64,000 nucleotides of DNA. It comes from an uncultured Bacteroidales bacterium. GTDB taxonomy: Bacteria > Bacteroidota > Bacteroidia > Bacteroidales > P3. Numbering within the stretch: the stretch's first letter is position 1; each line of letters begins with the position of its first letter. The position numbers and the translations under genes are program-made. Of this stretch, positions 18,554-55,539 are shown in pieces. The notes beneath the pieces are model-generated. The model did not search any database. It worked only from the letters and a program-made list of their open reading frames with translations, and was not told the DNA's origin. Location of the stretch: contig CAMHDJ010000004.1 of NCBI GenBank assembly GCA_946183915.1, positions 17,998 to 81,997 of the forward strand. The letters run 5' to 3'.

Positions 18554-21500
18554 TTATTTGAAGTACTGCACGCCGGACTCGAAGATCTGCTGGTCGTCGT
18601 CGCCGTAGATGTTCAGGGCGGAGCCCTTGCTGCGGCGCTCGCTGTGGCCCATCTTGCCGAAGACGCGCCCGTCGGGGCTGGTGATGCCCTCGATGGCCAT
18701 GTAGGAACCGTTCATGTTGTACTCCTCGTCCATGGTGGGGTTGCCCTGCAGGTCGACATACTGGGTGGCCACCTGGCCGTTCTTGAAGAGGCGGTCGATC
18801 CACTCCTGCGGTGCCACGAAGCGGCCTTCGCCGTGCGAGATGGGGATGACGTAGGTCTTGCCCAGCTCGGCGCGCTGCAGCCACGGGCTGAGGTTCGAGC
18901 TGACGCGCGTGTAGGCCATCTTGCTCTGGTGGCGTCCGATGGTGTTGAAGGTCAGCGTGGGGGCATCGGCGGCCTGCGGACGTATCTCGCCGTAGGGCAC
19001 CAGGCCCAGCTTCACCAAGGCCTGGAAGCCGTTGCAGATGCCCAGCATCAGGCCGTCGCGCTTGCCCAGGAGCTCCATCACGGCATCGGCGATCCGCGGG
19101 TTGCGGAAGACGCTGGTGATGAACTTGGCGCTGCCCTCCGGCTCGTCGCCGGCCGAGAAGCCGCCGGGGATCATGATGATCTGGCTGCGACGGATGGCGT
19201 CGACGTAGGCGTCCACGCTTTCGCGGATCTGCTGGCCGTTCTGGTTGCGGAAGACGATGATCTCGCTCTCGGCGCCGGCGCGGTTGAAGGCGCGGGCCGA
19301 GTCGTACTCGCAGTTGGTGCCCGGGAAGGCGGGAATGAAGACGTGCGGCTTGGCAGAATGCGTTAATGTGTTAATGTGTGAATGCGTTAGTGGAGTGGAG
19401 GCCTTGAAGAGCGGGCTTTCCACTTTCATCTTTCCGCTTTCCACTTGGTTGGTGCGGGTGGGGAAGACCCCTTCGAGGGGCTTTTGCCAGGCGGCGAGGG
19501 CATCCTCGATGCTGATGCGCTCGCCCTTGTACTCGAAGAAGGGCTTGTCGGTGACCACGCCGATCTCGCGGCAGCGGAAGGGCAGCTCGCCCACTTCGGC
19601 GGCGGTCTCGACGATGATGTGGCCGTAGTTGATCTTGCTCAGGTCGTCGAGGGCGATACCGTCGCTGAGGGTCACGCCCAGCTTGTTGCCGAAGGCCATC
19701 TTGCTGATGGCTTCGACCAGTGCGCCGCGACCGATGCAATAGGTCGACAGCACCTGCCCCTGCTCGATGCTGCGACGCAGGGCGGCGTACTGGCTGAGGG
19801 CGTCCTCGTAGTCGGGCATGTCGTAGTCCTTCTGCTTCACGTCGAGCAGCACCAGACGGCTGCCGGCTTTCTTCAGTTCGGGGGTGACGACATGCTGCAG
19901 GTCGCTGATGCCGACGGCGAAGGAGCAGAAGGTGGGCGGCACGTCGATATCGTTGAAGGTGCCGGACATGGAGTCCTTGCCGCCGATGGCGGGCAGGTGG
20001 AGGCCCATCTGGGCGTTGTAGGCACCCAGCAGGGCGCTGAAGGGCTCGCCCCAGCGGTAGGGGTCGTTGCCCAGTTTCTTGAAGTATTCCTGGAAGGTGA
20101 GGCGCACCCGGCTGGCATCGCCACCGGCGGCGGCGATCTTGGCCACCGAGTCGAGCACGGCATAGACGGCGCCGTGGAACGGGCTCCAGCTGAGCTTGTA
20201 GGGGTCGAGACCATAGGACATGATGGTCACCGTGTCGCACTTGCCGTCCAGCAGGGGCAGCTTGCCGATCATGCTCTGCGTGGGCGTCAGCTGATATTTG
20301 CCGCCGAAGGGCATCACCACGCTGCCGGCGCCGATCGAGCTGTCGAACATCTCGACCAGTCCTTTCTGCGAGCAGACGTTGAGGTCAGAAAGAACTTTAA
20401 GCCAAAGTTCTTTAGTGTTCAGTGGGCAGTGTTCAGCGTTCAGTGAGGTGGGGCCGTTTGCGTCAGCCAACTGACCACTGACCACTGACCACTGACCACT
20501 CTTCTCCGGCATGGTCACCGAGACGGTGGTCTCCTGGTGGGCGCCGTTGGTGTCGATGAAGCGGCGGCTGAGGTTGACGATCTCCTTGCCACGCCAGCTG
20601 ATCACCATGCGGGGCTCCTCAGTGACGGTGGCTACCACCGTGGCCTCGAGGTTCTCCTCATCGGCATAGCGCAGCATCTGGTCCACGTCCTTCGGGTCGA
20701 CCACCACGGCCATGCGCTCTTGGCTCTCGCTGATGGCCAGCTCGGTGCCGTCGAGGCCGGCGTACTTCTTGGGCACGCGATCCAGGTTGATCTGCAGGCC
20801 GTCGGCCAACTCGCCGATGGCCACACTGACGCCGCCGGCGCCGAAGTCGTTGCACTTCTTGATGAGCGACGACACCTCTTCGCGGCGGAAGAGGCGCTGT
20901 ATCTTGCGTTCGGTGGGGGCATTGCCCTTCTGCACCTCGGCACCGCAGGTGGTGAGGCTCTTGGTGGTGTGGCTCTTCGAGGCGCCCGTGGCACCACCGA
21001 TGCCGTCGCGGCCCGTGCGGCCACCCAGAAGGATGATGACGTCGCCCGGGTCGGAGGTGAGGCGCTTCACGGCGCGGCGCGGCGCAGCGGCAATGACGGC
21101 GCCGATCTCCATGCGCTTGGCCACATAGCCCGGATGGTAGATCTCGTTGACCAGGCCGGTGGCCAGGCCGATCTGATTGCCGTAGCTGCTGTAGCCGCGG
21201 GCGGCGGTGGTGACGATCTTGCGCTGCGGCAGCTTGCCGGGCAGGGTCTCGCTGAGGGGCTTGGTGGGATCGGCGGCGCCGGTGACGCGCATGGCCTGGT
21301 ACACGTAGGTGCGGCCGCTCAGCGGGTCGCGGATGCAGCCGCCCAGGCAGGTGGCCGCGCCGCCGAAGGGCTCGATCTCGGTCGGATGGTTGTGGGTCTC
21401 GTTCTTGAAGTTGATGAGCCACTCCTCGCGGTTGCCGTCGATCGTGACGGGCACCACGATCGAGCAGGCATTGATCTCGTCGCTCGGCTCCTGGTCGTCC

Positions 21501-22384
21501 AGGTAGCCGGCTTTCTTCAGCCGTTTGCCGGCCAGGGTGCCGATGTCCATCAGACAGACGTACTTGTCGGTGCGGCCGGCGTACTGCTCCTGGTGGTCGG
21601 CCAGATATTGATTGAAAGCACCCTCGATCAGCGGACGGTAGTAGCCGTCGTCGAACGTCACATCCTTCAGCTCGGTGGCGAAGGTGGTGTGGCGGCAGTG
21701 GTCGCTCCAGTAGGTGTCCAGCACGCGGATCTCGGTCATGGTGGGGTTGCGCTTTTCTTCGTCGTGGAAGTAGCGCTGTATGTGCTTGAAGTCGGCCAGG
21801 GTCATGGCCAGGCCCAGCGAGCCGTAGAGCTCCTTCAGCTGCGGTTCGGCCATGTCTTTGAAGCCGTCGAAGACGATGACGTCGGCCGGCTCGTCGAAGT
21901 GGTCCTCCAGGGTGGCGGGCTTCTCCTCGTCGGTCAGGCGGCTGTCCACGGGGTTCACGCAGTGCTTCACCACCGCTTCCTGCCACTCGCTCGCCGCTTT
22001 CCACTTGCCACTCTTCACGCCCGAGATGACATACGTCGTGGCGCTCTTGATGATTGGATGCTCGGCGTCGTTGAGCAGGCAGACGCACTGCTCGGCGCTG
22101 TCGGCCCGCTGGTCGAACTGGCCGGGCAGGTACTCCACCGTGAAGCAGAAGTCTCCGGCCTGGTGCGGGAACTCCTCGAGGTAGACGTCGTCGACCGGCG
22201 GCTCGCTGAAGACGGTGGTCAGGGCCGTCTGGAAGGTGGCGTCGCCGACGTTCTCCACGTCGTAGCGCACCAGCACACGCACCCCTTCGGCCTCGATGCC
22301 GAGGTATTGGCTCATTTCTTCCTTCAGCTCCTTGGCGCGCACGGCGTAGGGAGCCTTCTTTTCTACGTAGATTCTTCTTACCAT
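18554..22384 (-). CDS. purL: Phosphoribosylformylglycinamidine synthase, single-chain
   Basis: A 1276-residue purine biosynthesis enzyme converting FGAR, glutamine and ATP to FGAM. An N-terminal PurS-like domain is followed by the first synthase half (IQRYFHDEEKRNPTMTEIRV, WSDHCRHTTFATEL, NETHNHPTEIEPFGGAATCL). The second half contains LLGGRTGRDGIGGAT and DFGAGGVSVAIGELADG, and the C-terminus is a class I glutamine amidotransferase (AFPGTNCEYDSARAF, ending ITSPDGRVFGKMGHSERR). Two in-frame stretches do not look like PurL: about residues 629-656 (20415-20499) and about 981-1009 (19358-19444). Both are short-word arrays in linker positions. The reading frame is intact, so the enzyme should be functional. 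Confidence 0.95.
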   Translation of the reverse strand: MVRRIYVEKKAPYAVRAKELKEEMSQYLGIEAEGVRVLVRYDVENVGDATFQTALTTVFSEPPVDDVYLEEFPHQAGDFCFTVEYLPGQFDQRADSAEQCVCLLNDAEHPIIKSATTYVISGVKSGKWKAASEWQEAVVKHCVNPVDSRLTDEEKPATLEDHFDEPADVIVFDGFKDMAEPQLKELYGSLGLAMTLADFKHIQRYFHDEEKRNPTMTEIRVLDTYWSDHCRHTTFATELKDVTFDDGYYRPLIEGAFNQYLADHQEQYAGRTDKYVCLMDIGTLAGKRLKKAGYLDDQEPSDEINACSIVVPVTIDGNREEWLINFKNETHNHPTEIEPFGGAATCLGGCIRDPLSGRTYVYQAMRVTGAADPTKPLSETLPGKLPQRKIVTTAARGYSSYGNQIGLATGLVNEIYHPGYVAKRMEIGAVIAAAPRRAVKRLTSDPGDVIILLGGRTGRDGIGGATGASKSHTTKSLTTCGAEVQKGNAPTERKIQRLFRREEVSSLIKKCNDFGAGGVSVAIGELADGLQINLDRVPKKYAGLDGTELAISESQERMAVVVDPKDVDQMLRYADEENLEATVVATVTEEPRMVISWRGKEIVNLSRRFIDTNGAHQETTVSVTMPEKSGQWSVVSGQLADANGPTSLNAEHCPLNTKELWLKVLSDLNVCSQKGLVEMFDSSIGAGSVVMPFGGKYQLTPTQSMIGKLPLLDGKCDTVTIMSYGLDPYKLSWSPFHGAVYAVLDSVAKIAAAGGDASRVRLTFQEYFKKLGNDPYRWGEPFSALLGAYNAQMGLHLPAIGGKDSMSGTFNDIDVPPTFCSFAVGISDLQHVVTPELKKAGSRLVLLDVKQKDYDMPDYEDALSQYAALRRSIEQGQVLSTYCIGRGALVEAISKMAFGNKLGVTLSDGIALDDLSKINYGHIIVETAAEVGELPFRCREIGVVTDKPFFEYKGERISIEDALAAWQKPLEGVFPTRTNQVESGKMKVESPLFKASTPLTHSHINTLTHSAKPHVFIPAFPGTNCEYDSARAFNRAGAESEIIVFRNQNGQQIRESVDAYVDAIRRSQIIMIPGGFSAGDEPEGSAKFITSVFRNPRIADAVMELLGKRDGLMLGICNGFQALVKLGLVPYGEIRPQAADAPTLTFNTIGRHQSKMAYTRVSSNLSPWLQRAELGKTYVIPISHGEGRFVAPQEWIDRLFKNGQVATQYVDLQGNPTMDEEYNMNGSYMAIEGITSPDGRVFGKMGHSERRSKGSALNIYGDDDQQIFESGVQYFK
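19358..19444. repeat. Word element in purL: four 8-bp words, 27-bp core, four 7-bp words
   Basis: ATGYGTKA-type 8-bp words sit at 19358, 19366, 19374 and 19382. A 27-bp core begins GTGGAGTGGAGG. TTTCCAC-type 7-bp words sit at 19417, 19424, 19431 and 19438. The element is 87 bp (29 codons) and in frame just before the PurL amidotransferase domain. Confidence 0.88.
20415..20499. repeat. Word element in purL: four words, 29-bp core, four inverted words
   Basis: Left words are GTGTTCA-type at 20415, 20422, 20429 and 20436. A 29-bp core runs from GTGAGG to GCCAAC. Right words are TGACCAC at 20472, 20479, 20486 and 20493. The right arm is roughly the inverse of the left. In purL it encodes SGQWSVVSGQ-like residues. 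Confidence 0.9.
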
Positions 22385-22397
22385 ATTGTGTGTTGTT

Positions 22398-22970: not shown

Positions 22971-22981
22971 AAATCGAACTG

Positions 22982-23010
22982 CAAAGATACGAATAATATT
23001 TAATACCAAA
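22982..23010 (-). promoter_or_regulatory. Promoter of the acyltransferase-purL operon
   Basis: Leftward TATCTTTG (22989-22982) with TTTG 17 bp upstream (23010-23007). The -7 box ends about 12 bp before the ATG at 22970, so the leader is only a few nt. Confidence 0.75.
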
Positions 23011-23073
23011 AAAAATACTTTTCAACCGCTCCTCCAAAGCGCCCTCCGGCCCCCGACGACCCCTGTCATCCAG

Positions 23074-23188
23074 GCATCATCCAGGCATCATCTAGGCATC
23101 AACTAGGCATCAACTAGGCATCAACTAGGCATCAACTAGGCATCAACTAGGCATCCTCCAAGCATCCCCTCTGCATCATCTCTGCATG
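23074..23188. repeat. 11-bp periodic array (AACTAGGCATC words)
   Basis: GCATC or GCATG occurs at 23074, 23085, 23096, 23107, 23118, 23129, 23140, 23151, 23162, 23173 and 23184: eleven units with no phase break. The last three units and the following TTTCCCT match the tail of the array at 1342. It lies in the 410-bp gap between the acyltransferase and the next lipoprotein gene; apart from the two promoters, nothing else is seen there. Confidence 0.92.
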
Positions 23189-23328
23189 TTTCCCTGCAAA
23201 ATGCTTTGTTTCACCCTGTTTTCGGTAGGGCAGGCCGCAACTTGGCGGCGAGTCGGGCCGGTGGAGGATGTTTTTTGTTAAAAATATTTAAATGAGAGTC
23301 CGCTGCCGGTCGGTAGGGGAATTTTTCG

Positions 23329-26952: not shown

Positions 26953-26954
26953 TA

Positions 26955-27008
26955 GTGAGAGAAGTGAGGGAAGTGAAAGAAGTGAAAGAAGTGAAAGAAG
27001 TGAAAGAC
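26955..27008. repeat. Left arm of 9-bp words flanking the four-helix-bundle gene
   Basis: Six 9-bp units (GTGARRGAA, the last GTGAAAGAC) run in perfect phase from 26955 to 27008, then CGATA. The right arm at 27494-27529 is the inverse and has the same inner boundary word GTGAAAGAC. Confidence 0.9.
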
Positions 27009-27042: not shown

Positions 27043-27435
27043 ATGGATGCCAGATATGGTTTTCAACGGGTAGTGGCGTGGCAAAAAGCGCATGCTTTTG
27101 TAGTGCTTGTCTACAAAGTCACTCGAACATTCCCTGACGACGAACGATTTGGACTGACATCTCAGTTCAGACGAGCAGCGGTTTCGATAGAAGCAAATAT
27201 TGCTGAGGGTTACAAGAAGATTAGCAAGGCCGACAAGTTGCGCTTCTATAATATATCGCAAGGCAGTCTTGAAGAATGCAGGAATTATGTTATCCTTTCA
27301 TACGATCTAAACTATATAGACGAAAGATTGTTTGACCAATTATGTGACGCGTTGGAGGATGCCAGCCGGTTGATTAACGCCTATTGTGAAAGTATTGTAA
27401 GAGATGTGGCGATGAGGAACGATGATTTAAAGTGA
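27043..27435 (+). CDS. Four-helix bundle protein (S23/23S rRNA intervening-sequence family)
   Basis: A 130-residue all-helical protein of the S23 or IVP family: VVAWQKAHAFVVLVYKVTRTFP, FGLTSQFRRAAVSIEANIAEGY near 36-57, and a third helix SQGSLEECRNYVILSYDL. The fold is shared with Avd accessory proteins of diversity-generating retroelements. Family members are classically encoded inside 23S rRNA intervening sequences, but many are free-standing as here; the function is unknown. AT-rich relative to its neighbours. It sits between inverted arms of 9-bp words in the serS-flavodiiron gap, so it appears to be inserted cargo. Confidence 0.92.
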   Translation: MDARYGFQRVVAWQKAHAFVVLVYKVTRTFPDDERFGLTSQFRRAAVSIEANIAEGYKKISKADKLRFYNISQGSLEECRNYVILSYDLNYIDERLFDQLCDALEDASRLINAYCESIVRDVAMRNDDLK

Positions 27436-27493: not shown

Positions 27494-27529
27494 GTCTTTC
27501 ACTTCTGTCACTTCTCTCCCTTCTTTCAA
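27494..27529. repeat. Right arm of 9-bp words flanking the four-helix-bundle gene
   Basis: On the minus strand the units are GTGAAAGAC, GTGACAGAA, GGGAGAGAA and TTGAAAGAA: four 9-bp words, inverse of the left arm. It ends 12 bp before the flavodiiron start. Confidence 0.9.
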
Positions 27530-27541
27530 TTCTTAAAGAAA

Positions 27542-28769: not shown

Positions 28770-29438
28770 ATGATTGACAACAAAGCCCTTTTCACCATTG
28801 GTTACGGCCTATATGTCCTTGTCGCCCGGCAGGGCGACAAGGACAACGCCTGTATCATCAACGTGGCCCAGCAGGTCAGCAGCGACCCGCTGCAGCTGAT
28901 GATCTGCGTCAATAAGGCGAACCTCACGCACGACATGGTGCTGCGCACGCTGAAGTTCAACCTCTGTCCCCTCAGCGAGGAGGCCACCATGAAGCCCTTC
29001 CAGCACTTCGGCTTCCAGAGCGGCCGCGATGTAGACAAGTTCGCCGGCTGCGAGCAGGAGCTGCGTACGGAGAACGGCCTGCTGTACCTGCCGAAGTTCA
29101 TCAATGCCGTCATCAGCTGCGTCGTCACCAAGAGCATCGACCTCGGCAGCCACACCATGTTCATCGCCATGCCGCTGGAGGCCCGTATCCTCAGCGACAG
29201 CCCGTCCATCACCTACGCCTACTACCAGCAGCACATCAAACAAGTGGGTGGTGGGCAGTTGAAAGTGGATAGCAATAGTGGTCAGGTGCCACCCACTACC
29301 CACTCCACACTACCCACTCAAAAGAAGTGGGTCTGCGACGTCTGCGGCTACGTCTACGAAGGCGACTCTCTGCCACCCGACTTCATCTGCCCCTGGTGCA
29401 AGCACCCTGCCAGCGACTTCCGCTTGATGGAACAATAA
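28770..29438 (+). CDS. hrb: High-molecular-weight rubredoxin (flavin reductase-rubredoxin fusion)
   Basis: A 222-residue fusion. Residues 1-155 are an FMN-binding flavin reductase domain (NACIINVAQQVSSDPLQLMI). Residues about 187-222 are a rubredoxin with Cys189, Cys192, Cys207 and Cys210. It passes NAD(P)H-derived electrons to flavodiiron proteins, matching the gene directly upstream. The linker (about 158-183) is encoded by an in-frame 7-bp word element (29244-29317). A decayed copy of this gene's last 18 codons lies beyond the next gene at 30331. Confidence 0.93.
   Translation: MIDNKALFTIGYGLYVLVARQGDKDNACIINVAQQVSSDPLQLMICVNKANLTHDMVLRTLKFNLCPLSEEATMKPFQHFGFQSGRDVDKFAGCEQELRTENGLLYLPKFINAVISCVVTKSIDLGSHTMFIAMPLEARILSDSPSITYAYYQQHIKQVGGGQLKVDSNSGQVPPTTHSTLPTQKKWVCDVCGYVYEGDSLPPDFICPWCKHPASDFRLMEQ
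29244..29317. repeat. Word element in the rubredoxin fusion: four words, 18-bp core, four inverted words
   Basis: Words GTGGGTG, GTGGGCA, GTTGAAA and GTGGATA occupy 29244-29271. The core GCAATAGTGGTCAGGTGC is 29272-29289. Words CACCCAC, TACCCAC, TCCACAC and TACCCAC occupy 29290-29317. The core aligns with that of the intergenic element at 55465 at 12 of 18 positions. Confidence 0.92.
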
Positions 29439-32020: not shown

Positions 32021-32563
32021 ATGAGCAAAAAGTTTATCTGCCCCGTGTGCGGTTACGTCTACGAGGGCGACGAGATGCCTGAGAAGTGCCCCATCTGCGG
32101 CAAACCGATGCAGGAAGTGAAAGAGGACATCAAGACCTGGGCCGCCGAGCACATCGTCGGCGTGGCCAAAGATGCCCCCGAAGATATCAAGATGGACCTC
32201 CGCGCCAACTTTGAGGGCGAGTGCAAGGAAGTCGGTATGTACCTGGCCATGGCCCGAGTGGCCCATCGCGAGGGCTACCCCGAAATTGGCCTCTATTGGG
32301 AGAAGGCTGCCTACGAGGAGGCTGAGCACGCCGCCAAGTTTGCCGAACTGCTGGGCGAGGTGTTGACCGACAGCACCAAAGAGAATCTGAAGATGCGTGT
32401 CGACGCTGAGTACGGCGCCACCGCCGGCAAGACCGACCTGGCCAAGCGTGCCAAGGCCCTCAACCTCGACGCCATCCACGACACGGTCCACGAGATGGCA
32501 CGCGACGAGGCCCGCCACGGCAAAGCTCTCGAAGGCCTGCTTAACCGCTACTTCAATAAGTGA
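32021..32563 (+). CDS. Reverse rubrerythrin
   Basis: A 180-residue protein with the rubredoxin domain first (Cys7, Cys10, Cys23, Cys26) and the ferritin-like di-iron domain second ([51 protein letters not shown]). This reversed order defines the family, known in clostridia as an O2/H2O2-responsive NADH peroxidase partner. It probably reduces H2O2 in the cytoplasm. A 7-bp word element begins in its stop codon and fills the gap to lpxK. Confidence 0.95.
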
Positions 32564-32678
32564 GCAGTGGTAAGTGTTTAGTGTTTAGTGTGCTACGCAG
32601 AATAATGGCGGCAACTAAACACTAAACACTGAACACTAAACACTGAACACTAAACACTAAACACTGAACACTGAACAC
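32560..32678. repeat. Word element: four words, 28-bp core, nine inverted words
   Basis: Left words GTGAGCA, GTGGTAA, GTGTTTA and GTGTTTA run 32560-32587. The core starts GTGTGCTACG and ends GCGGCAAC (32588-32615). Nine right words TAAACAC or TGAACAC follow at exact 7-bp spacing to 32678. It fills the whole gap between reverse rubrerythrin and lpxK. Confidence 0.92.
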
Positions 32679-32679
32679 G

Positions 32680-37525: not shown

Positions 37526-37533
37526 TACTTTTG
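37526..37533 (+). promoter_or_regulatory. Promoter -7 box (TACTTTTG) for the C25 protease
   Basis: TACTTTTGCC follows a T-rich stretch and ends 21 bp before the ATG at 37555. Confidence 0.75.
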
Positions 37534-37554
37534 CCGTGGTCAAATGTAGCCGCA

Positions 37555-40500
37555 ATGAAGAGTCTTCTGCAATATATAGCATTGACCCTGTGTTTGTTGC
37601 TCCCTTGCGCTGTGCGCGCGCAGGTGGGCGGAGAGGCCTCGTTTTCGCTCCGCGAAGGGCCCGAAGGCGCCTGGCGGGTGGAGTTCCGCCTGGGGCGCTG
37701 GGGGGTGGACACGGTGGCGGGTGGCTATAGCCGCCTCGTGGCCGCCGGCCTGACCGGTGCCCACGGCGCGGTGGGCTGTCCGTCGCTGCCGACGGAGAGC
37801 CGGCTGGTGGTGCTGCCGCGGGGCAGCCGCCTGGCGCTTGCTGCGGTCGAGGGGCGCGAGGTGACCCTCGACGGGGCCGTCGACGCCGGCCGGCCGCTGC
37901 ATCCCGTCGCCGCGGCGCGGCCCAAGGATGCCCCGCCGGCGGCCTTCGATCCCGACGCCAAGATCTACGGCTCGGCCCAGTGGTACCGCGGCGGCGAGCC
38001 GCTGGAGCTGGAGCATGTAGGCACCATGGGGGGCAGCGAGGTGTTCCGCCTCACGGTGCGCCCGGTGGCCTACCAGCCCGCAAGCGGCGCCCTGCGCCTC
38101 TACGAACGCCTCGAGGCCCGGCTCGAAGGCGCGGCCAGCGGCGCCGGCACGGCCCCGTCGAGGCGCTATCTCATCGTGTCGCGGCCGCAGTTTCGCGAGG
38201 GCTTGCAGCCTTTCGTGCGCTGGAAACGCCAGCAGGGCTACGAGGTGGTGGAGCGCTATGCCGTCACCAACAGCCGCGCGGTGGTCAAGGGCCTGATCGA
38301 TGCCGAGTTTGCCGAGCCCGACCGCTGGCCCGGACACCTGCTGCTGGTGGGCGATGTGGCGCAGCTGCAGGCCTTCCTCGGCACCACCCGCCCCTCCGAC
38401 ATGGGGCAGCATATCACCGACCTCTACTACGCCGAGCACACGGGCGACTACCTGCCCGATGCGCTGGTGGGCCGCTGGCCTGTGAACGACAGCGCCGAAC
38501 TGGGCGCCGTGGTGCGCAAGAGCATGGCCTACGAGCAGGGCCGGCTGGCCGACAGCGCCGCCCTGCGCCGCCTGCTGCTCGTGGCCGGCGCCGAGAGCAC
38601 CGCGCCCGCCCCGACCACCACCAACGGGCAGGTGAACTACCTGGGGCGCGAGATCAAGCTGGCGCACCCCGCCTGGGACACCCTCTGCTATCGCAATCCC
38701 GCCTCGGGCTCGCAGCGCGAGGCCATCCTGACCGACCTGCGCCAGGGCGTAGCGGCGGTCAACTATACGGCCCACTGCACCGCCGCCGGCTGGTCGTCGC
38801 CGGCGGTGTCGTTCACCAGCATCGACACGCTGGGCCTCGCACAGCCGATGCTCTACGTCAACAACTGCTGCCTGAGCAACGAGTTCGGCGGCACCTGCTT
38901 CGGCGAGCAGCTGCTGCGTGCCCCCGCGGGGGGCGCCATCGGCGTTGTCGGGGCCACCAACTCGACCCTCTGGGACGAGGACTACTACTGGGCCGTGGGC
39001 CCGAAGCTGCCGCTCGCCCTCGAGCCGCTCTACGACAGTCTGCGCCCGGGCGCCTTCGACCGCTGGCTGGGCCGCGCGGCCGACATCCGCTCGCAGGGCC
39101 GGCTGCTGGCCGCGGGCAACCTGGCCGTGACGGCCGTCGGCTCGCCCTACGACAAGTTCTACTGGGAGATCTACTGCCTGCTGGGCGACCCCTCGCTGGA
39201 GCCCTGGGTGGGTGTGCCGCCGGCGGTCGACCTGCATCTGGCCGACGGCCTGCCGCGCAACGGCGCGGGCACCCTGCACCTGGGGGGCACCCCGGGCGCC
39301 ACGGTCACCGCCATGCAGCACGACAGTGTGCTGGGCTGCGGCACCATCGGCGCCGACGGGCTGCTGGCGCTGCCGCTCAGCGTGTCGATCGACACCACAG
39401 CACTCGTGCTCACCGCCACCCGCAGCGGCTACATTCCGCGCATCGACACCGTCGTGGCGCTGCCCGCCGAGGGCATGGCCGTGGCGCTGCGTGAGGTGAC
39501 GGTGGGCGACAGCACCGTCGGCTGCCGGCTGGAGAACGTGGGCACCCTGCCGCTCTACGGCCTGCGGGTGGTGCTGAGCCAGCTGGAGGCCGACAGCCTG
39601 ACCGACGCCCTGGTGGAGGAACGGGCGGCGACGGTCGACACCCTCATGCCGCAACACTCCAGCCCGTGGCTGACCCTGCCGCTGCACGTCTCGGCCGTGG
39701 GGCAGACGCCCGGCTGGGAGGCCGACCTCACAGTGTGGGACAGCGTCGAAGGGATGCTCTGCCACCTCGTGCTGCAGGGGCGGCTGTCGGTGGCCTATCC
39801 GTCGGCGGAGTTCCGGCTGCTCGAGGCCGACGGCAGCGAAAGCCACTCGCTGCAGCCGCAGCGGGGCTACCTTCTTGAGACCCTTCTCGCGGGCACGGCC
39901 GACAGCCTCGCCCTCCGAGTCACCGCCCTGCCGTCGGAGGACGTGCTGATAGATACGACTCTCCACTCTCCACTCCCCGCTCTTCACTCCCCGCTCACCA
40001 CTCCCGACAGCCTGACACACCTGCGCCTGCAGGCCACGCTCCGGCTGGGCAACCACCGCAGCCAGAGCGAGCACTACCTGACCGCCGGCCGGCGCGACGA
40101 CAGCTTCGAGGCCGGCATGGGGTCCTACCCCTGGCTGGCGGCCGGCACCGCGGGGTGGCAGGTGGACAGCACCGTGGCTCGCAGCGGGCGCTACAGCCTG
40201 CGCAGCGGCGCCATCGGCCACCGCCAGACCTCCGATCTGGTGCTCGAGGTGTGGCTGCCGGTCGACGACACCCTCCGCTACTGGTCGCGCATCTCGAGCG
40301 AACCCAATGCCGACAAGTTGCTCTTCACGGTCGACGGCCAGTCGCGTGCCAACGCCCGCTGGGGCAGCGGCGACTGGAAACAGCAGGTGGTGACGCTCGG
40401 CGCCGGGCGGCACACGCTGCGGTGGCGCTATGTGAAGGACGACAGCGTCGAGCAGGGAAGCGACTGCGCCTGGCTCGACGACGTGCAGCTGCCGATGGCC

Positions 40501-40797
40501 GTGTGGGATGCACCCTACGGATGGTTCGGTTCGCTGCCGGCGCTGGCCGTCGAGTCGCCAGAGGACGAGTCGTCCCGATTCCGGGTCTATCCCAATCCGA
40601 CCACCGGCCGCTTCGGGTGGAGCGGCGAGGAGGTGCGGCGCATGACCCTCCGCGACCTCTATGGACGCGAGGTTCTCACGCTCGAACAACCCCTGCCGAC
40701 GACGGTCGACCTGAGCTCGCTGCCCGACGGACTCTACCTGCTTCAGGTGGCCACCGATCATGATACCTACCACGTCAAACTGATAATACGCCATTAA
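37555..40797 (+). CDS. Gingipain-family (C25) cysteine protease with T9SS sorting domain
   Basis: A 1080-residue secreted protein. The signal peptide (MKSLLQYIALTLCLLLPC, cut near ARAQ) precedes a propeptide-like part. The C25 catalytic domain holds His407 (NYTAHCTAAGW) and the Cys438/Cys439 pair (VNNCCLSNEFGG). Later beta-sandwich domains follow, and a type A C-terminal sorting domain begins near residue 1008 (FRVYPNPTTGRFGW, LPDGLYLLQV). It should leave via type IX secretion and act at the cell surface. An in-frame array of seven 7-bp words (39960-40008) adds SPLPALHSPL-like residues around 803-818 in a domain linker. The start at 37555 avoids the promoter. Confidence 0.92.
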   Translation: MKSLLQYIALTLCLLLPCAVRAQVGGEASFSLREGPEGAWRVEFRLGRWGVDTVAGGYSRLVAAGLTGAHGAVGCPSLPTESRLVVLPRGSRLALAAVEGREVTLDGAVDAGRPLHPVAAARPKDAPPAAFDPDAKIYGSAQWYRGGEPLELEHVGTMGGSEVFRLTVRPVAYQPASGALRLYERLEARLEGAASGAGTAPSRRYLIVSRPQFREGLQPFVRWKRQQGYEVVERYAVTNSRAVVKGLIDAEFAEPDRWPGHLLLVGDVAQLQAFLGTTRPSDMGQHITDLYYAEHTGDYLPDALVGRWPVNDSAELGAVVRKSMAYEQGRLADSAALRRLLLVAGAESTAPAPTTTNGQVNYLGREIKLAHPAWDTLCYRNPASGSQREAILTDLRQGVAAVNYTAHCTAAGWSSPAVSFTSIDTLGLAQPMLYVNNCCLSNEFGGTCFGEQLLRAPAGGAIGVVGATNSTLWDEDYYWAVGPKLPLALEPLYDSLRPGAFDRWLGRAADIRSQGRLLAAGNLAVTAVGSPYDKFYWEIYCLLGDPSLEPWVGVPPAVDLHLADGLPRNGAGTLHLGGTPGATVTAMQHDSVLGCGTIGADGLLALPLSVSIDTTALVLTATRSGYIPRIDTVVALPAEGMAVALREVTVGDSTVGCRLENVGTLPLYGLRVVLSQLEADSLTDALVEERAATVDTLMPQHSSPWLTLPLHVSAVGQTPGWEADLTVWDSVEGMLCHLVLQGRLSVAYPSAEFRLLEADGSESHSLQPQRGYLLETLLAGTADSLALRVTALPSEDVLIDTTLHSPLPALHSPLTTPDSLTHLRLQATLRLGNHRSQSEHYLTAGRRDDSFEAGMGSYPWLAAGTAGWQVDSTVARSGRYSLRSGAIGHRQTSDLVLEVWLPVDDTLRYWSRISSEPNADKLLFTVDGQSRANARWGSGDWKQQVVTLGAGRHTLRWRYVKDDSVEQGSDCAWLDDVQLPMAVWDAPYGWFGSLPALAVESPEDESSRFRVYPNPTTGRFGWSGEEVRRMTLRDLYGREVLTLEQPLPTTVDLSSLPDGLYLLQVATDHDTYHVKLIIRH
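39960..40008. repeat. 7 x 7-bp word array in the C25 protease gene
   Basis: Seven words (TCTCCAC, TCCCCGC and variants) in exact phase, 49 bp. On the minus strand they read GTGGAGA, GCGGGGA and so on, the same word family and the same 49-bp length as the array at 53774-53822. Confidence 0.88.
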
Positions 40798-49530: not shown

Positions 49531-49730
49531 CCCCCTGAAACCCTGTCTGCTCCCTGATGGCTCCGTGATGACTCCCTGATGACTCTCTTAAAACCAGGGC
49601 AAAATCCTTGCCCTGTCAGCGTTTTGCGAGTTTTCCAGCATGGTTGACACACTTTCGGAAGGTCAAACATCTCGTACTGAATGTTTTGAATGTGCAAATT
49701 AGATCGTGCACGATCTAATTTTTTAACCTA
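49531..49730 (+). repeat. Composite intergenic element, copy 2
   Basis: Near-identical to copies at 7072 and 57552. GATG words are at 49556, 49567 and 49578; then the CAGGGCAA/TTGCCCTG hairpin; the conserved GCGTTTTGCGAGTTTTCCAG; and the perfect 26-bp palindrome at 49696-49721 followed by T residues. It shares an extra upstream part (ACCCTGTCTGCTCCCTGATG) with copy 3. It fills the gap between pepD and cutC. Confidence 0.92.
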
Positions 49731-50517: not shown

Positions 50518-53093
50518 AGAAGATCATCCTTGCGGCGGCAGCCGTTGTGCTGTTGGCCGCCTGCGGCCGCGACCCGCATTTCATCACCGATCGCGACTAC
50601 CGGAACACGGTGCATGAGGATTTTGAAACAAGGATTTCTCAATTCTCAATTCTCAATTCTCAATTAAGGCTCGACACCCTCTCGCGCGCGGAGCGCGAGG
50701 CCATGGAGTTCCTTTATGCCTATATGCCGCTGAGCGACCTGGCTGACTATGAGCCACAGTTCTACCTCGACCAGGTGCGCTACGCTTTCCGCGCCCGCGA
50801 GGAGATGCCGTGGGGCAAAGACATTCCGGAGGATGTCTTCCGCCACTTCGTGCTGGTGTACCGCGTCAACAACGAGAACCTCGACACGGCCCGTATGGTC
50901 TTCTTCCGCGAACTGAAGGAGCGCGTGCAAGGCTTGACCATCGAGGAGGCGGCGCTGGAGGTGAACCACTGGTGCCACGAGCATGTGGCCTACCGCGCCA
51001 GCGACAGCCGCACCTCGGCGCCGCTGGCCACCATGCGCACCAGCCTGGGCCGCTGCGGCGAGGAGAGCACCTTCGCCGTCACCGCCCTGCGCGCCGTGGG
51101 CATTCCCGCCCGCCAGTGCTACACGCCCCGCTGGGCGCACTGCGACGACAATCACGCCTGGGTAGAAGTATGGGTCTCAGGCAAATCCGGAGCCTCTGGC
51201 GAGTGGAAGTTCCTCGGCGCCTGCGAGCCCGACCCACGTCTAAACATGGGCTGGTTCTCCGTGCCGAGCACGCGCTGCATGATGGTACACTCGAAGGCCT
51301 TCGGCAAGTACAAGGGCGACGAGGAGGTGGTGAAGCGCACGGGCCTCTACAGCGAGCTGAATCTGCTTTCTCATTATGCACCCACACGGCGTGTCACCGT
51401 CACCGTGATTGACGGCAATGCCGACCCTGTCGAAGGCGCACAGGTAAAGTTCAAGCTCTATAACTACGCTGAATATTACACACTCAGCACACAGACCACC
51501 GACAAGGAAGGCCACGCCAGCCTCACCACTGGCCTCGGCGACCTCCTGATCTGGGCGACTATGGGGCAAACGGCAGACGGCGAGACGCTTTTCGCCTTCG
51601 ATAAGATTGATGTCCGCAAGGACTCCACGCTGACCCTGCGCACCGATTATGCTTATGATTTGAAATATGACCCATCGGTGAAAGAGTTTGAGATGCTGCC
51701 GCCAATGGCGGGCAACCCCAAGGTGGTAGCCACCGAAGAAGAGACTGCCGCCAACGCCAAGCGCTTGGCCTACGAGGATTCGCTGCGTAACGCCTATACT
51801 GCCACGTTCCCGACGAAAGAGAACTACACAAAGTTGCTACCCTACACGGATGACAATGCTTGGGACATCATCCGCAGGAGTGAGGGCAACTATGCCGAGA
51901 TTGCAGAGTTTATCTGGGAGGATTTTGATTATGATTACCTCTGCACCTTCAGTGACAAGGACCTGCGCGACATCACAGCCGACGTGCTGGCCGCCAACTA
52001 CGACTTGTTCACCGACAAAAATGTTTCCTACGAGGTTTACAAGAAAGGCATCCTCCCCGCCCGCATCAGCAACGAGATGGTGTGCCCTTACCGCGAGGAG
52101 CTCGCCTGCTTCAAGGGCATGACGGCCGAGGAGATACGACAATGGACGCTGGACAGCATCGCCATCGACGACAGCAGCAACTATTACAACTGTCCCATCT
52201 CGCCTGTGGGCGTGTACAAGCTTCGCCGCGCCGACAGCCACAGCCGCGACATCTTCTTCGTGGCCGCCTGCCGTGCCGCCGGGGTGCCTGCCTATCTGGA
52301 CAATGCCACCAATATCATCTACTGCTGGGATGGTACGGATTGGAAGAAATCCGACTGGTCCGACGAGTCTGACAAGTCTGACAAGTCCGACAATGCATTT
52401 CTCACCCTCACCTACCGCGGCAAGGATCCCGCCAAGCCTGTCTACTGGCCCCACTTCACGCTGGCCAAGCTGGAGAACGGCGACCTGCGTACCTTCGACT
52501 TCGAGAACGACCCGCGCATGGCCTCCTTCCCCGCCACCCTCGAGTTGGAGCCCGGCACCTACTGTCTCAGCACCGGCAACCGCTACCCCGACGGGGCGGT
52601 TCGGTCAAGGATGGAGTTCTTCGAGGTGAAGGCTGGCGAGAAGCTGAGTAAAGAGATCGTCATCCTGCCTCTGCTGGCCCGCACCGACGAGCTGGGCATC
52701 GTGGACAAGAACCTGGAGCTCTTCGACGGCATCGAGCTGTGGGACTATGCCGGCAAGGAGGGAATGCTCTACGTCAACCTGGGCGAATACAGCGAGCCCT
52801 CGAAGCACCTCATCGTCGAGCTGCGCCAGCTGCAGAAGGAGATGAAGCAGTGGGGCGGCATGACCCTCATGGTGGGGCCCTCCAATATCGGCATGGCCGA
52901 GTGGAATCTGGTCAACACCGACTTCGCCTACCGGAAGGGCCAGTTGGAGCAGCGCATCTGTGAGGCTGCCAAGCTGACCAACGTGGAGTACCCGCTGGTG
53001 GCCCTCATCGACGGCGATGGCCACATCCTCTACCACAGCACGGGCTACAAGATCGGCGTGGTGGAGCAGGTGCTCAAAGCCACCCGCCGGTAG
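50514..53093 (+). CDS. Lipoprotein with transglutaminase-like protease fold
   Basis: An 859-residue lipoprotein (signal ending LLAAC, lipobox Cys17). A transglutaminase-like domain at about 110-245 has the triad Cys181 (GRCGEESTF), His214 (DDNHAWVEVW) and Asp240 (CEPD). Beta-sandwich domains follow (VTVTVIDGNADPVEGAQVKF near 292) and the C-terminus is thioredoxin-like in sequence (YPLVALIDGDGHILYHSTGY). It is probably a surface or periplasmic amidase or peptidase. Two in-frame word arrays, at 50636 (SQFSILNSQ) and 52358 (SDESDKSDKSD), sit in linkers. It is co-translated with cutC (ATGA). Confidence 0.85.
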   Translation: MKKIILAAAAVVLLAACGRDPHFITDRDYRNTVHEDFETRISQFSILNSQLRLDTLSRAEREAMEFLYAYMPLSDLADYEPQFYLDQVRYAFRAREEMPWGKDIPEDVFRHFVLVYRVNNENLDTARMVFFRELKERVQGLTIEEAALEVNHWCHEHVAYRASDSRTSAPLATMRTSLGRCGEESTFAVTALRAVGIPARQCYTPRWAHCDDNHAWVEVWVSGKSGASGEWKFLGACEPDPRLNMGWFSVPSTRCMMVHSKAFGKYKGDEEVVKRTGLYSELNLLSHYAPTRRVTVTVIDGNADPVEGAQVKFKLYNYAEYYTLSTQTTDKEGHASLTTGLGDLLIWATMGQTADGETLFAFDKIDVRKDSTLTLRTDYAYDLKYDPSVKEFEMLPPMAGNPKVVATEEETAANAKRLAYEDSLRNAYTATFPTKENYTKLLPYTDDNAWDIIRRSEGNYAEIAEFIWEDFDYDYLCTFSDKDLRDITADVLAANYDLFTDKNVSYEVYKKGILPARISNEMVCPYREELACFKGMTAEEIRQWTLDSIAIDDSSNYYNCPISPVGVYKLRRADSHSRDIFFVAACRAAGVPAYLDNATNIIYCWDGTDWKKSDWSDESDKSDKSDNAFLTLTYRGKDPAKPVYWPHFTLAKLENGDLRTFDFENDPRMASFPATLELEPGTYCLSTGNRYPDGAVRSRMEFFEVKAGEKLSKEIVILPLLARTDELGIVDKNLELFDGIELWDYAGKEGMLYVNLGEYSEPSKHLIVELRQLQKEMKQWGGMTLMVGPSNIGMAEWNLVNTDFAYRKGQLEQRICEAAKLTNVEYPLVALIDGDGHILYHSTGYKIGVVEQVLKATRR
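50636..50663. repeat. 4 x 7-bp word array (TTCTCAA) in the transglutaminase gene
   Basis: Four identical TTCTCAA words from 50636 to 50663, near the lipidated N-terminus of the protein. Confidence 0.9.
52358..52393. repeat. 9-bp word array (GTCYGACRA) in the transglutaminase gene
   Basis: Four 9-bp words at 52358, 52367, 52376 and 52385, preceded by one degenerate unit, in frame and encoding SD-E/K repeats. The same word family occurs in lpxK at 33090. Confidence 0.88.
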
Positions 53094-53122
53094 AGAATAT
53101 TTGCACCCCGTTGTTGCATTCC

Positions 53123-53173
53123 GTCATGTCGGTGCGCCTAATCCATCAGAACGAAAAGGCACACCGACATGAC
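53123..53173 (+). promoter_or_regulatory. Leader hairpin enclosing the start codon of the second ECF sigma gene
   Basis: GTCATGTCGGTG (53123-53134) and its perfect inverse CACCGACATGAC (53162-53173) form a 12-bp stem with a 27-nt loop; the ATG at 53169 lies within the right arm. An upstream box near 53096-53104 (AATATTTG) may be the promoter. Confidence 0.7.
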
Positions 53174-53669
53174 TGTTAATGGACATAACGAAGACGAGCG
53201 GGCCTTCCGCGAGCTGGTGCGACGACAACGCGACCTCATCTGGCAGGTCTGTCGCTCGTTCCGCCTCAGTGCCGCCTGGGAGCCGCAGGACGCCTTCCAC
53301 GAGGTGCTTATGGCCCTCTGGCGCGACTACGGCTCCTTCGGCGGCCGCAGCTCGGAGCGCACCTGGGTCTACCGCGTGGCGGTCAACACCCTGATCTCCC
53401 TCAGGCGCCGCATCGGCAACCAGCCCACTGCGGACGCCCCTGCGACGCCCGACCCCTCCACCGACCCCGACGGCGACGAGCGGAGGCACTACCTGCGCCA
53501 GCTCATCGACACCCTCGACGAGCGCGACCACAGCATTGTGATGGCGCACCTGCACGGCTTCAGCAACATTGAGATCGCCCGCATGACCGGCCTCACGGCG
53601 GCCCACGTCAGTGTGCTCCTCACCCGTATCAAACGTAAACTCAGAAAGCTTTATGAAGATGAAATATAA
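53169..53669 (+). CDS. RNA polymerase sigma factor, ECF type
   Basis: A 166-residue ECF sigma. Region 2 is about residues 8-75 (AFRELVRRQRDLIWQVCRSF, PQDAFHEVLMALWRDYGSF, WVYRVAVNTL). Region 4 is about 105-160 (RQLIDTLDERDHSIVMAHL, GFSNIEIARMTGL with AAHVSVLLTRIKRKL). It is followed by an overlapping membrane protein gene, probably the anti-sigma factor, and two lipoprotein genes that may be its targets. The start codon is buried in a leader hairpin. Confidence 0.92.
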   Translation: MTVNGHNEDERAFRELVRRQRDLIWQVCRSFRLSAAWEPQDAFHEVLMALWRDYGSFGGRSSERTWVYRVAVNTLISLRRRIGNQPTADAPATPDPSTDPDGDERRHYLRQLIDTLDERDHSIVMAHLHGFSNIEIARMTGLTAAHVSVLLTRIKRKLRKLYEDEI

Positions 53670-54009
53670 CGACTTTGAACAGCAGTGGCAGGCGCTGAGC
53701 GACGACCTGCAGTCGGGCCGTTGCCCGATGACCGACACCGAGCTGGACCGCGAGGTGCGGCAGGTGCTTTGGAGTGGAGAGCGGAGAGTGGAAAGTGGAG
53801 AGCGAAAAGTGGGAAGTGGGAACTGGAAGGCGTGGGTTGCGGCGGCGGCATGTGTGGCGGCGGTGGTGCTGCCCCTGGCCCTGCACGGCGCTGCCGACGA
53901 CGACGGCATCCGCACCGTCAAGGTCGACGGCGAGCAGATGCTCTTCGCCTGCAACACTGGCTGCTCGCCCGACGGAGCGATAGAAACCTTTAAAACCTAC
54001 CTGCGATGA
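53653..54009 (+). CDS. Small membrane protein, probable anti-sigma factor
   Basis: A 118-residue protein. The N-terminal cytoplasmic part is about residues 1-68; one hydrophobic segment covers about 70-88 (WVAAAACVAAVVLPLAL); a short C-terminal part holds two Cys (FACNTGCSPDG). The start at 53653 overlaps the sigma gene end by 17 bp; a second ATG at 53659 is possible. Residues about 42-57 (SGERRVESGERKVGSG) are encoded by seven 7-bp words and look inserted just before the membrane segment. Confidence 0.72.
   Translation: MKMKYNDFEQQWQALSDDLQSGRCPMTDTELDREVRQVLWSGERRVESGERKVGSGNWKAWVAAAACVAAVVLPLALHGAADDDGIRTVKVDGEQMLFACNTGCSPDGAIETFKTYLR
53774..53822. repeat. 7 x 7-bp word array in the probable anti-sigma gene
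   Basis: Seven words (GTGGAGA, GCGGAGA, GTGGAAA and variants) in phase, 49 bp, in frame. Equal in length and word type to the inverse of 39960-40008. Confidence 0.9.
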
Positions 54010-54692
54010 AAAGATTGTTGTTACCCCTGACGCTCCTGCTGCTCCTGCTGACAGCCTGCCAGCGCGAGGAGCCGTTGCCCGAGGCCACCACGGCTGCCAA
54101 GGCCATCTACCTGAAGTACGCCGACCGCACGGATCTCACCGTGGCCCTCGTGGGTGGCTACCGCGGCTTCAACGCCGTCATGTTCGAGGCCCCCGACCAT
54201 GAGGCCTGGCTGCAGCTCTGCGACGACTTAGGTGTACACCACCGCGAGGATGCCGGTGCCCTCGACTCGGTCAGCGTCTCCAACCTCAAGGCCACCATCA
54301 CCCGCTCCTACACCCTCGACAGCGTGCCCAGCATGGGCGAAGCGTTCACCCAGGTGCTGCAAGAGCTGATGGCGCAGAAGCTGGATGGCCGGCCCATCGA
54401 CACGATGCTCTGCGTGGACACCGTCATCCGGTTAGACACCCTCGTCACCGGCAGCGTACACTACGACCACGGTGCGCTGATCGACTCCATAATTGACACC
54501 ACATTCCGCTCCCACGGTGTCCGACCGCCCACCACCGATCCCCTGATGCAGACCGCCCTGCAGCACGGCGACAGCGGCTACCTCGTCGCCAGCGACAGCC
54601 GGCGCCTCACGCTCTGCCTCTTCTTCTACAGCACAATGGAGGAGATGGCGCAGATAATCAATCACGTCACCAATATACACACACACCAATGA
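54006..54692 (+). CDS. Lipoprotein of unknown function in sigma operon
   Basis: A 228-residue lipoprotein (signal ending LLLLTAC, lipobox Cys18). The mature part is alpha/beta (YADRTDLTVALVGGYRGFNA, MFEAPDHEAWLQLCDDLGV) with no recognised family. It overlaps the anti-sigma-like gene upstream and the next lipoprotein downstream by 4 bp each, so all four genes form one operon. Confidence 0.78.
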   Translation: MKRLLLPLTLLLLLLTACQREEPLPEATTAAKAIYLKYADRTDLTVALVGGYRGFNAVMFEAPDHEAWLQLCDDLGVHHREDAGALDSVSVSNLKATITRSYTLDSVPSMGEAFTQVLQELMAQKLDGRPIDTMLCVDTVIRLDTLVTGSVHYDHGALIDSIIDTTFRSHGVRPPTTDPLMQTALQHGDSGYLVASDSRRLTLCLFFYSTMEEMAQIINHVTNIHTHQ

Positions 54693-55456
54693 AACGCATC
54701 GTAACCTTACTGATGGCGGCTCTGCTCCTCGCCGCCTGCCAACCGGAGGAGCCTACGACCAACCCTCAACCTGCACCCCAACCCGCCGTGCCCTCGCTGG
54801 CCGGCACCGCCTGGGTGGGCACGCTGGCCGACACCTACCAGGGCTACCCCATGACCATCACCTACAACCTAGACTTCGCCGACGACAGCACTGGCAGCCT
54901 CTACGTGGAGCTGTTGGTCAACGGCATCACCAATCCTGTCGACCTCACGTTCCACTACACCTTCGACGGCGACAGCGGCCTGCTGGAGGGCGACGACTGG
55001 AATGCCGACTTCGCCTACCACGCCGAGGGGCCAACCATCACAACCTACATTTACATGATCGACGACCAATATGGCGACACCCTGGGCGGCGAGGTGACCC
55101 TCTACCCGCGAGGTGAACAGCCTGCGCCGCCAGTGGTCGACTCCTTCCCGGCCAACACCGACTGGAGCGCCCAGCAGGTGCTCGACAGCGGCGACACCGT
55201 CACCTTCGCCCTCGCCTTCTGGGACTACGGCGCCGGCGGCTCGCTCACCATCCGTCTGCTCGACCACAGCGTCTCGACCTACATCGGCTGGCAGTATACC
55301 CCCGCCACCGCCCGAGGCACTCTCACCCTTTCCGGCCACACCGTCCCCTTCACCTACGATGCCGCCACCGACGTCATCGCTTGTGTGATCAACGGCAGGA
55401 TCCATTTCGGCGACGAGAGCGTCACCGTCGGAGGGCCGTTGCAGTTTCGAAGGTAG
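54689..55456 (+). CDS. Lipoprotein with two beta-rich repeats
   Basis: A 255-residue lipoprotein (signal ending LLLAAC, lipobox Cys16), then a Pro/Gln/Glu linker. Two similar beta-rich parts (about 38-140 and 150-255) each begin with an x-W motif (GTAWVGTLADTYQGYPMTIT and NTDWSAQQVLDSGDTVTFAL), suggesting internal duplication of a lipocalin-like domain. The last gene of the second ECF operon. It is convergent with glmS. Confidence 0.75.
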   Translation: MKRIVTLLMAALLLAACQPEEPTTNPQPAPQPAVPSLAGTAWVGTLADTYQGYPMTITYNLDFADDSTGSLYVELLVNGITNPVDLTFHYTFDGDSGLLEGDDWNADFAYHAEGPTITTYIYMIDDQYGDTLGGEVTLYPRGEQPAPPVVDSFPANTDWSAQQVLDSGDTVTFALAFWDYGAGGSLTIRLLDHSVSTYIGWQYTPATARGTLTLSGHTVPFTYDAATDVIACVINGRIHFGDESVTVGGPLQFRR

Positions 55457-55464
55457 GGAATTTA

Positions 55465-55539
55465 GTGGGCAGTAGAGAAGTGGGTAGTGGATAGCACCTT
55501 CGGTCAAGTGCTACCCACTACCCACTATTCACTACCCAC
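55465..55539. repeat. Word element between convergent genes: four words, 18-bp core, four inverted words
   Basis: Left words GTGGGCA, GTAGAGAA (8 bp), GTGGGTA and GTGGATA run 55465-55493. The core GCACCTTCGGTCAAGTGC is 55494-55511. Right words TACCCAC, TACCCAC, TATTCAC and TACCCAC run 55512-55539. The core shares GCA at its left and GGTCAnGTGC at its right with the element inside the rubredoxin fusion. It fills the gap to the glmS stop and could fold as a long hairpin. Confidence 0.92.

What the first reader, a model, noticed from the sequence alone, without database searches (positions are those of the whole stretch)
19358..55539. A family of 'four words - core - four inverted words' elements, some in frame inside genes
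Five elements share one plan: 19358-19444, 20415-20499, 29244-29317, 32560-32678 and 55465-55539. Each has four tandem words of 7 bp (8 bp in one arm of 19358), a unique core of 18-29 bp, then four words (nine in 32560) that in most cases roughly invert the left arm. The words differ between elements (GTGTTCA, GTGGGTA, GTGTTTA) while the architecture is constant. That argues against simple copying of one sequence and for a process that regenerates or homogenises words within each element. Three of the five lie in coding sequence without breaking the frame. I know of no described family with this plan; it differs from the single fixed palindrome of Rickettsia RPE elements.
Basis: seen in the sequence. 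Interest (0 to 1): 0.88.

Follow-up and report, generated by a model that had tools for sequence, protein, structure and literature searches.

The report
Genome hairpins with swappable word arms
This likely gut bacterium and its relatives carry short hairpin-shaped DNA repeats, built from small repeated words around a shared centre and lying inside housekeeping genes and in tight gaps between genes; related species carry different words at some of the same spots, so the hairpins likely spread as mobile DNA and are likely rewritten by copying errors.

Summary
The arrays are real and far beyond chance. Four of the five listed elements (20415, 29244, 32560, 55465) have the plan "tandem words - core - inverted words"; 19358 is two adjacent unrelated arrays. 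The word is AGTGNNN: 182 genome matches to AGTGNNNAGTGNNNAGTG against 5 for a reversed control.

The cores are not unique. One family (76 bp, 16 full-length places here, also in other species) keeps GTAGCAC...GTGCTAC. A second group keeps a GGCTGNCGC-type motif while its words change (AGTGTTC, AATTGAA, GGTTATA, GAATGAT, even 8- and 9-mers); its right arm matches its own left arm (0 of 10,000 permutations). At orthologous slots related species have no element, an expanded one, or one with other words. In the sample 17 of 31 inverted elements lie inside genes, none in divergent gaps.

I read them as dispersed, RPE-like palindromic repeats that probably spread by copying, with arms that turn over by slippage and probably template switching, surviving where inserts are tolerated. 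No mobilising enzyme was found.

The parts
20414..20500 (.). Element in purL: AGTGTTC-type words, core, inverted ACTGACC words; in frame, about residues 628-657
   Evidence: orthologous in G001 with a right arm of about 13 words; other words in G012
20460..20468 (-). Conserved core motif GGCTGACGC of this element
29243..29318 (.). 76-bp family A element forming the linker between the flavin reductase and rubredoxin domains
   Evidence: 13 of 13 relatives compared have a 32-43 bp linker instead
32559..32679 (.). Element filling the rubrerythrin-lpxK gap: AGTGTTT words, core tgctacgcagaataatggcggc, nine to ten inverted words
   Evidence: the rubrerythrin stop lies in the first word and the lpxK ATG follows the last
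55464..55540 (.). 77-bp family A element between the convergent ends of ORF 54689-55456 and glmS
   Evidence: G007 has a hairpin followed by TTT (terminator-like) there
19358..19395 (+). One-armed 8-mer array AATGYGTT in purL (left part of the listed 19358 element)
19416..19446 (-). One-armed 7-mer array TTTCCAC in purL, not the inverse of its neighbour
39957..40002 (-). One-armed AGTGGAG-type array inside the C25 peptidase gene (37531-40797)
53773..53825 (+). One-armed AGTGGAG array; G007 has 21 bp (three words) more in 98%/94% identical flanks
21988..22019 (-). Short degenerate AGTGGAA array in a variable purL loop

Best explanation
These are dispersed palindromic repeats, with two arms made of short tandem words around a core shared between copies, which likely spread by an unidentified transposition-like copying and are likely rewritten by replication slippage within an arm and occasional template switching between the arms. 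Shown: the copies, the shared cores, the different words at one orthologous slot, length changes in whole words, and the placement inside genes, in gaps between genes on the same strand and between convergent genes. Inferred: the copying step, slippage as the cause of within-arm likeness, template switching as the cause of arm-to-arm likeness, and tolerance as the reason for placement (the copies compared here lie in interdomain linkers, variable loops and stop-to-start gaps). On this reading two processes act together: dispersal of a whole hairpin with its words, and later drift of the words in place, so that each species ends up with its own vocabulary in the same tolerant slots.
For: Dispersal: the 76-bp family has 16 full-length places in this genome and at least one match (E up to 1e-4) in 35 of 59 sampled genomes of the genus, own genome included, with a near-fixed length and shared core. 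The odd last word AATAACT recurs in copies at different loci (L064, L115). The G001 copies at L111 and L132 share right-arm words and core type. The GGCTGACGC motif alone leads to such elements: 6 of 49 occurrences adjoin an array and 6 of 6 have the inverted arm; for shuffled motifs 1 of 274 and 0. Gain and loss: at e32560, 11 of the 14 relatives resolved on both sides have no array, one has an element with other words, two have degenerate arrays. At e29244, 13 of 13 lack the element, two of them (G001, G010) with short word-like stretches. In-place turnover: the orthologous copies in G000 and G023 differ by the same base in 3 of 4 left words. The purL right arm has about 4 words in G000 and about 13 in G001. 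The array at 53773 differs by exactly 3 words from G007. 34 non-A elements: within arm 0.802, between arms 0.732, other elements of the same genome 0.555. Placement: 17 of 31 inverted elements inside ORFs, 9 in codirectional gaps, 4 convergent, 0 divergent, 1 at an edge; bp-weighted chance of 0 divergent among 13 is 0.0034 (two of the 13 share one gap).
Against: No mobilising enzyme was found. IS200-like (RAYT-type, PF01797) gene number does not track AGTG arrays across 119 genomes (rho 0.08). No target duplication could be defined: the sites compared, at roughly 68-96% flank identity, show replacement of about 4-43 bp rather than a clean insertion. In the 76-bp family arm-to-arm matching is absent, so template switching is not general. 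Element detection required similar arms, so those identities are biased upward; searches are not biased in that way. In the genus-wide AGTG count the reversed-pattern control is itself high in many genomes (for example G098, 135 against 697), because other heptad words match it. No hit to one 77-bp copy in plasmid records or to one 76-bp copy in phage records.
Confidence: 0.55

Rival explanations
1. Local origin only: each element grows in place by slippage from a short seed and becomes a palindrome by template switching, with no mobile element.
For: Different words and even different word lengths at one slot; many one-armed arrays (37 single against 16 paired, though some singles have a decayed partner); at two sites some relatives without the element contain a short seed (CACT, AATT).
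Against: A 76-bp family with near-fixed length and shared core at 16 unrelated places and a core motif shared by elements with different words and word lengths.
Confidence: 0.2
2. Functional RNA hairpins: the elements act in transcripts, as terminators, processing or stability sites, and selection keeps them there.
For: Found only in presumably transcribed places, 0 of 13 intergenic ones in divergent gaps; strong folds; a hairpin followed by TTT in G007 sits where 55465 lies.
Against: No covariation above shuffles in 12 family A copies; more than half lie inside ORFs; gain and loss; no T-run after the window copies (sequence); no Rfam match in the window other than a tRNA.
Confidence: 0.15
3. 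REP-like elements mobilised by the IS200-like (RAYT-type) transposases present in the genome.
For: Two such genes in this genome and a weak correlation with the 76-bp family (rho 0.26, p 0.045, 59 genomes).
Against: The two genes are flanked by other, GC-rich palindromes and no AGTG array in the fetched flanks; no correlation with AGTG arrays (rho 0.08; 10 genomes without the gene have 50 or more matches); G019 (81% complete) has none found but 22 family A matches counted on both strands.
Confidence: 0.05
4. Chance or assembly artefact.
For: The Bacteroidales records named are mostly metagenome assemblies, which can collapse or misjoin repeats.
Against: Controls near zero; reading frames kept across elements in purL, IleS, RimO, RsgA, NqrA and others; separate genomes share copies.
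Confidence: 0.02

Closest known systems
Rickettsia palindromic elements (RPE)
   Same: Palindromic repeats, many copies, often in frame inside unrelated genes (review PMC10969869, passages read). Ten family A places listed give translated matches to the copy in L043, in open frames of 188-952 aa, so they are read in the same frame.
   Different: Shorter (76-121 bp in the window against about 150 bp); arms are tandem 7-bp words; words change between elements and species around a shared core; the host is a Bacteroidales.
Heptamer direct repeats (TAACTGA) of Beggiatoaceae, Cyanobacteria and five Bacteroidetes
   Same: Arrays of 7-bp words, mainly intergenic, some in genes (PMC4679880: abstract and sections 3, 12, 15 read). 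TAACTGA read on the other strand is the word AGTTATC, inside the ARTKNNN class counted.
   Different: [quoted passage not shown] no inverted arms with a shared core are described in the parts read.
BrickBuilt MITE of Porphyromonas gingivalis
   Same: A tandem repeat inside an element with inverted ends in a Bacteroidales (PMC4596501, abstract read).
   Different: 23-bp unit, always intergenic, repeat in the middle and small inverted ends outside, not word-built arms.
Coding palindromes of nematomorph mitochondria
   Same: Inverted repeats inside genes with gains and losses; template switching named as one possible upkeep mechanism (PMC6649704, abstract and passages read).
   Different: Long perfect inverted repeats whose arms encode conserved protein; the word tandem does not occur in its main text.
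REP sequences with RAYT transposases (description recalled)
   Same: Short dispersed palindromes; such genes exist here.
   Different: No association in position, and none with AGTG array number.

Membership tests
RPE | Palindromic repeat present in many copies | tested here: met
RPE | Inserted in frame in unrelated protein genes | tested here: met
   17 of 31 inverted elements overlap ORFs by at least 70%; gene names
RPE | Copies share one conserved sequence/peptide | tested here: inconclusive
   Family A yes (same-frame translated matches); the GGCTGNCGC group shares only the core
RPE | Homologous to Rickettsia RPE families | not tested
   no RPE sequence was compared
MITE | Terminal inverted repeats | tested here: met
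   88% of arm cells pair
MITE | Target site duplication | tested here: inconclusive
   sites too diverged, replacement rather than clean insertion
MITE | Partner transposon sharing the ends | not tested
   no search for a full-length partner; only PF01797 was searched
REP/RAYT | Elements flank or track the RAYT gene | tested here: not met
   (AGTG arrays rho 0.08; family A rho 0.26)
Heptamer LSSR/TAACTGA repeats | Tandem 7-bp direct repeats beyond chance | tested here: met
Heptamer LSSR/TAACTGA repeats | Word TAACTGA placed just upstream of start codons | tested here: not met
   the common words differ; more than half of the inverted elements lie inside ORFs
Intrinsic terminator | Hairpin followed by a T-run | tested here: not met
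   sequence beside 20414-20500, 29243-29318, 32559-32679, 55464-55540

The most novel reading that the evidence does not exclude
A class of mobile palindromes with a constant core and exchangeable arms: the word of both arms is rewritten as a unit around a GGCTGNCGC core, so that each lineage overwrites the same tolerant slots in housekeeping genes with its own vocabulary of 7-, 8-, 9- or 10-bp words. No described repeat family that I know of works this way.
Probability: 0.35. Interest if true: 0.87.

Novelty: new variant of a known kind. Interest (0 to 1): 0.72.

Why it matters
It is a natural record of how short repeats are born, spread and change inside housekeeping genes. Because sister species hold no element, an expanded one, or a differently worded one at the same site, slippage, template switching and transposition can be told apart by comparing strains. 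It also offers one source for the fast-changing linkers of proteins in these bacteria. Heptad arrays of the wider ARTKNNN class are common in parts of the order: by my count from the table, about 43 of 149 genomes have 50 or more matches and at least twice the control, the richest 1,165 against 47; others sit at the control level. The process may therefore be widespread.

Tried and rejected
RAYT mobilisation: rejected as the main cause. Selection on RNA pairing: no covariation above shuffles in 12 copies of family A. A one-sequence family: rejected for the GGCTGNCGC group. Arm-to-arm homogenisation in family A: not seen. Known RNA families: only a tRNA in the window. Plasmids (one family A copy) and phages (another copy): no match. 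Four IMG/VR contigs carry a 31-bp arm pattern and two of them (L346, L349) show an inverted partner; not followed up. Paper searches on heptanucleotide or heptamer repeats, Cryptobacteroides, STRR, RPE, quasipalindromes and Bacteroidales palindromes listed no paper whose title or abstract start shows this plan; the library is open-access only. Word seeds at sites without the element (CACT, AATT) were seen at two sites only and are not claimed as a rule.

Limits: the gene caller is home-made and counts an element as inside an ORF from 70% overlap; detection selects for similar arms; each Markov control is a single simulation. In one search this genome has 19 pairs in the left-right order and 0 in the reverse; 6 of the 19 are self-overlaps of the palindromic word AATT, leaving 13. 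In the relatives the counts are 30 and 5, and the 5 involve AATT words, which read on either strand. In one search one match is near chance: 131 of 149 genomes have at least one, and in some the control is as high or higher (G262, 448 against 545). At e32560, G014 matched on one side only. For e55465 only G007 gave both flanks; eight others matched one side, and G022, G015, G004, G001, G023 and G014 were not fetched there. For e39957, G012 has a longer array and G010 none; G041 gave no two-sided match. The outputs were cut, so I saw part of those alignments; one search covers the same purL sites.
Full report
WHAT IS THERE. Four of the five listed elements have the reported plan; 19358 does not. 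The word is AGTGNNN on the left and its reverse complement on the right. AGTGNNNAGTGNNNAGTG has 182 matches in the 2.22-Mb genome against 5 for the reversed pattern. In an 836-kb sample (40 fetched stretches plus the window), periods 7, 8, 9 and 11 gave 91, 23, 13 and 98 arrays against 1, 0, 0 and 0 in one Markov-5 simulation. A scan for pairs of inverted arrays with any word of 7-11 bp, over this sample and stretches of relatives, found 60 elements, 31 of them in this genome, against 1 in one Markov-4 control. In the ARTK-word search all 13 genuine pairs in this genome have the same left-right order and none the reverse (6 further listed pairs are self-overlaps of AATT; relatives in Tried and rejected).

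THE CORES ARE SHARED. Family A (29244 and 55465 in the window) is an almost complete palindrome of 76 bp, four words and AGCA(C) in each arm. A model of it finds 16 full-length places in this genome and at least one match in 35 of 59 sampled genomes of the genus, own included. Of 28 distinct full-length copies collected, 20 are exactly 76 bp. Many of the other elements carry a core of the type GGCTGNCGC or GGCTACGC. Starting from the motif alone, five variants have 268 occurrences in the samples; 18 adjoin a tandem array and 13 of these have an inverted right arm. For GGCTGACGC the numbers are 49, 6 and 6. For twelve shuffled motifs they are 274, 1 and 0. The words beside this core type differ: AGTGTTC and AGTGGTC (G000, G001), AATTGAA, GGTTATA, GAATGAT and AAAAATG (G002), 8-mers TTGCGTTA (G000) and 9-mers AAATCTAGT (G002).

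ARMS. For 24 motif-anchored arrays, chosen without looking at the right arm, the right arm matches its own left arm at 0.723 against 0.584 for others (0 of 10,000 permutations; 13 in G000: 2 of 5,000; 5 in G002: 36 of 5,000). Some of the 24 have no partner at all (own score 0.40-0.58) and are included. Words within an arm agree more than words across arms (0.802 and 0.732; other elements 0.555; 34 non-A elements, biased by selection). In family A this is different: in 25 copies arms of one copy match no better than arms of different copies, and pairing shows no covariation (88.3% paired against 88.2% in shuffles, 12 copies). Within-arm likeness there is slightly raised (22 of 1,000 shuffles reach it).

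THE SAME SLOT IN OTHER SPECIES. purL at 20415: G000 has 87 bp; G001 the same element with its right arm grown, 147 bp in all, in an open frame; G012 an element with AATTGAA/AATTGAG words and another core; several species carry 9-bp or palindromic words there; others an ordinary linker. Gap L064:14276: G000 and G023 have the 76-bp element, differing by the same base in three of four left words; G002 has a GGTTATA element; G004 TTTTGAA words with partly inverted ones. RimO gene (L050): 7-bp words in G000, about 10-bp words with inverted arms in G001. Flavin reductase-rubredoxin linker (29244): 13 of 13 relatives have a 32-43 bp linker, in G001 and G010 with short word-like stretches. Rubrerythrin-lpxK gap (32560): of 14 relatives resolved on both sides, 11 have no array, G002 has an element with GAATGAT words, G007 and G019 have degenerate arrays. 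S1/helix-hairpin-helix protein gene (L043; 22 genomes aligned): the family A slot holds other palindromes or words in G001, G052, G015, G012, G008 and G002; the second, 8-mer element is private to G000 among the 22. The 53773 array differs by three words from G007 in 98%/94% identical flanks.

PLACEMENT. In the sample 17 of 31 inverted elements lie inside ORFs, 9 between codirectional genes, 4 between convergent genes, 0 between divergent genes, 1 at an edge. Nine of the 13 intergenic ones sit in gaps of 88-118 bp, most of which the element fills. Divergent gaps hold 35% of intergenic bases, so 0 of 13 has a chance of 0.0034. Host genes include purL, ileS, rimO, rsgA, nqrA and a murC/mpl-like ligase. 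The 29244 element covers about residues 159-183, between the flavin reductase (10-159) and rubredoxin (187-217) domains.

WHO. The window's genome belongs to a genus of Bacteroidales; relatives found by PurL include RUG, RGIG and other rumen or gut metagenome genomes and Candidatus Colimorpha onthohippi, whose 17,483-bp contig has the length of G013:C87. In the order, ARTKNNN arrays are frequent in some genomes (1,165 matches against 47 in the control in the richest) and at control level in others.

HOW IT LIKELY WORKS. Shown: copies, shared cores, slots with different words, whole-word length changes, placement. Inferred: a copying step spreads a hairpin with its words; slippage then spreads word changes along an arm; template switching at the hairpin, a mechanism named elsewhere for quasipalindromes (PMC6649704, passages read), sometimes carries them to the other arm; survivors are those in tolerant places. 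In a coding copy the words must also avoid stops: AGTGGGTAG holds TAG, and in two coding family A copies read here (29244 and L043:18188) the second word ends in GGGC, which gives CAG in the frame used (sequence).

VERDICT. Real, abundant, partly as described. Closest in behaviour to Rickettsia palindromic elements, but word-built and with words that change around a shared core. No mobilising enzyme was found; RAYT genes do not fit.

Noticed in passing
window 1349-1433, 7072-7107, 23066-23187, 49550-49585, 57702-57737: Arrays of 11-bp words (AGGCATCAACT, CTCCCTGATGA); in the sample 43 of 98 such arrays lie in divergent gaps and only 5 in genes, so they look like a separate, promoter-side class.
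   Followed up: partly
L046:614, L047:16926, L061:16133, L063:8553, L066:9552, L069:5772, L076:11356: A larger intergenic repeat with a palindrome like TTAGATCGTGCACGATCTAA before one left arm of family A, in most copies followed by GAATTACTCGAA words; 7 copies printed from the sample.
   Followed up: no
L109, L110: Two IS200-like (RAYT-type) genes flanked by GC-rich REP-like palindromes.
   Followed up: partly
window 26954-27007 and 27495-27534: Two inverted arrays of the 9-bp word AGTGAAAGA about 490 bp apart, flanking ORF 27043-27435.
   Followed up: no
purL loops in L080-L102: Species-specific in-frame 9-bp words in protein linkers (CCCATTAAA, ACTAGTNNN, GACCTTAAG, TTCCGGAAA) at the same sites in different species.
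   Followed up: partly
L346, L349: IMG/VR contigs carrying AGTGGGY-type arms with an inverted partner, so the kind may reach beyond this genus.
   Followed up: no
L209 (G007): A GC-rich hairpin followed by TTT stands where this genome has the 55465 hairpin.
   Followed up: no
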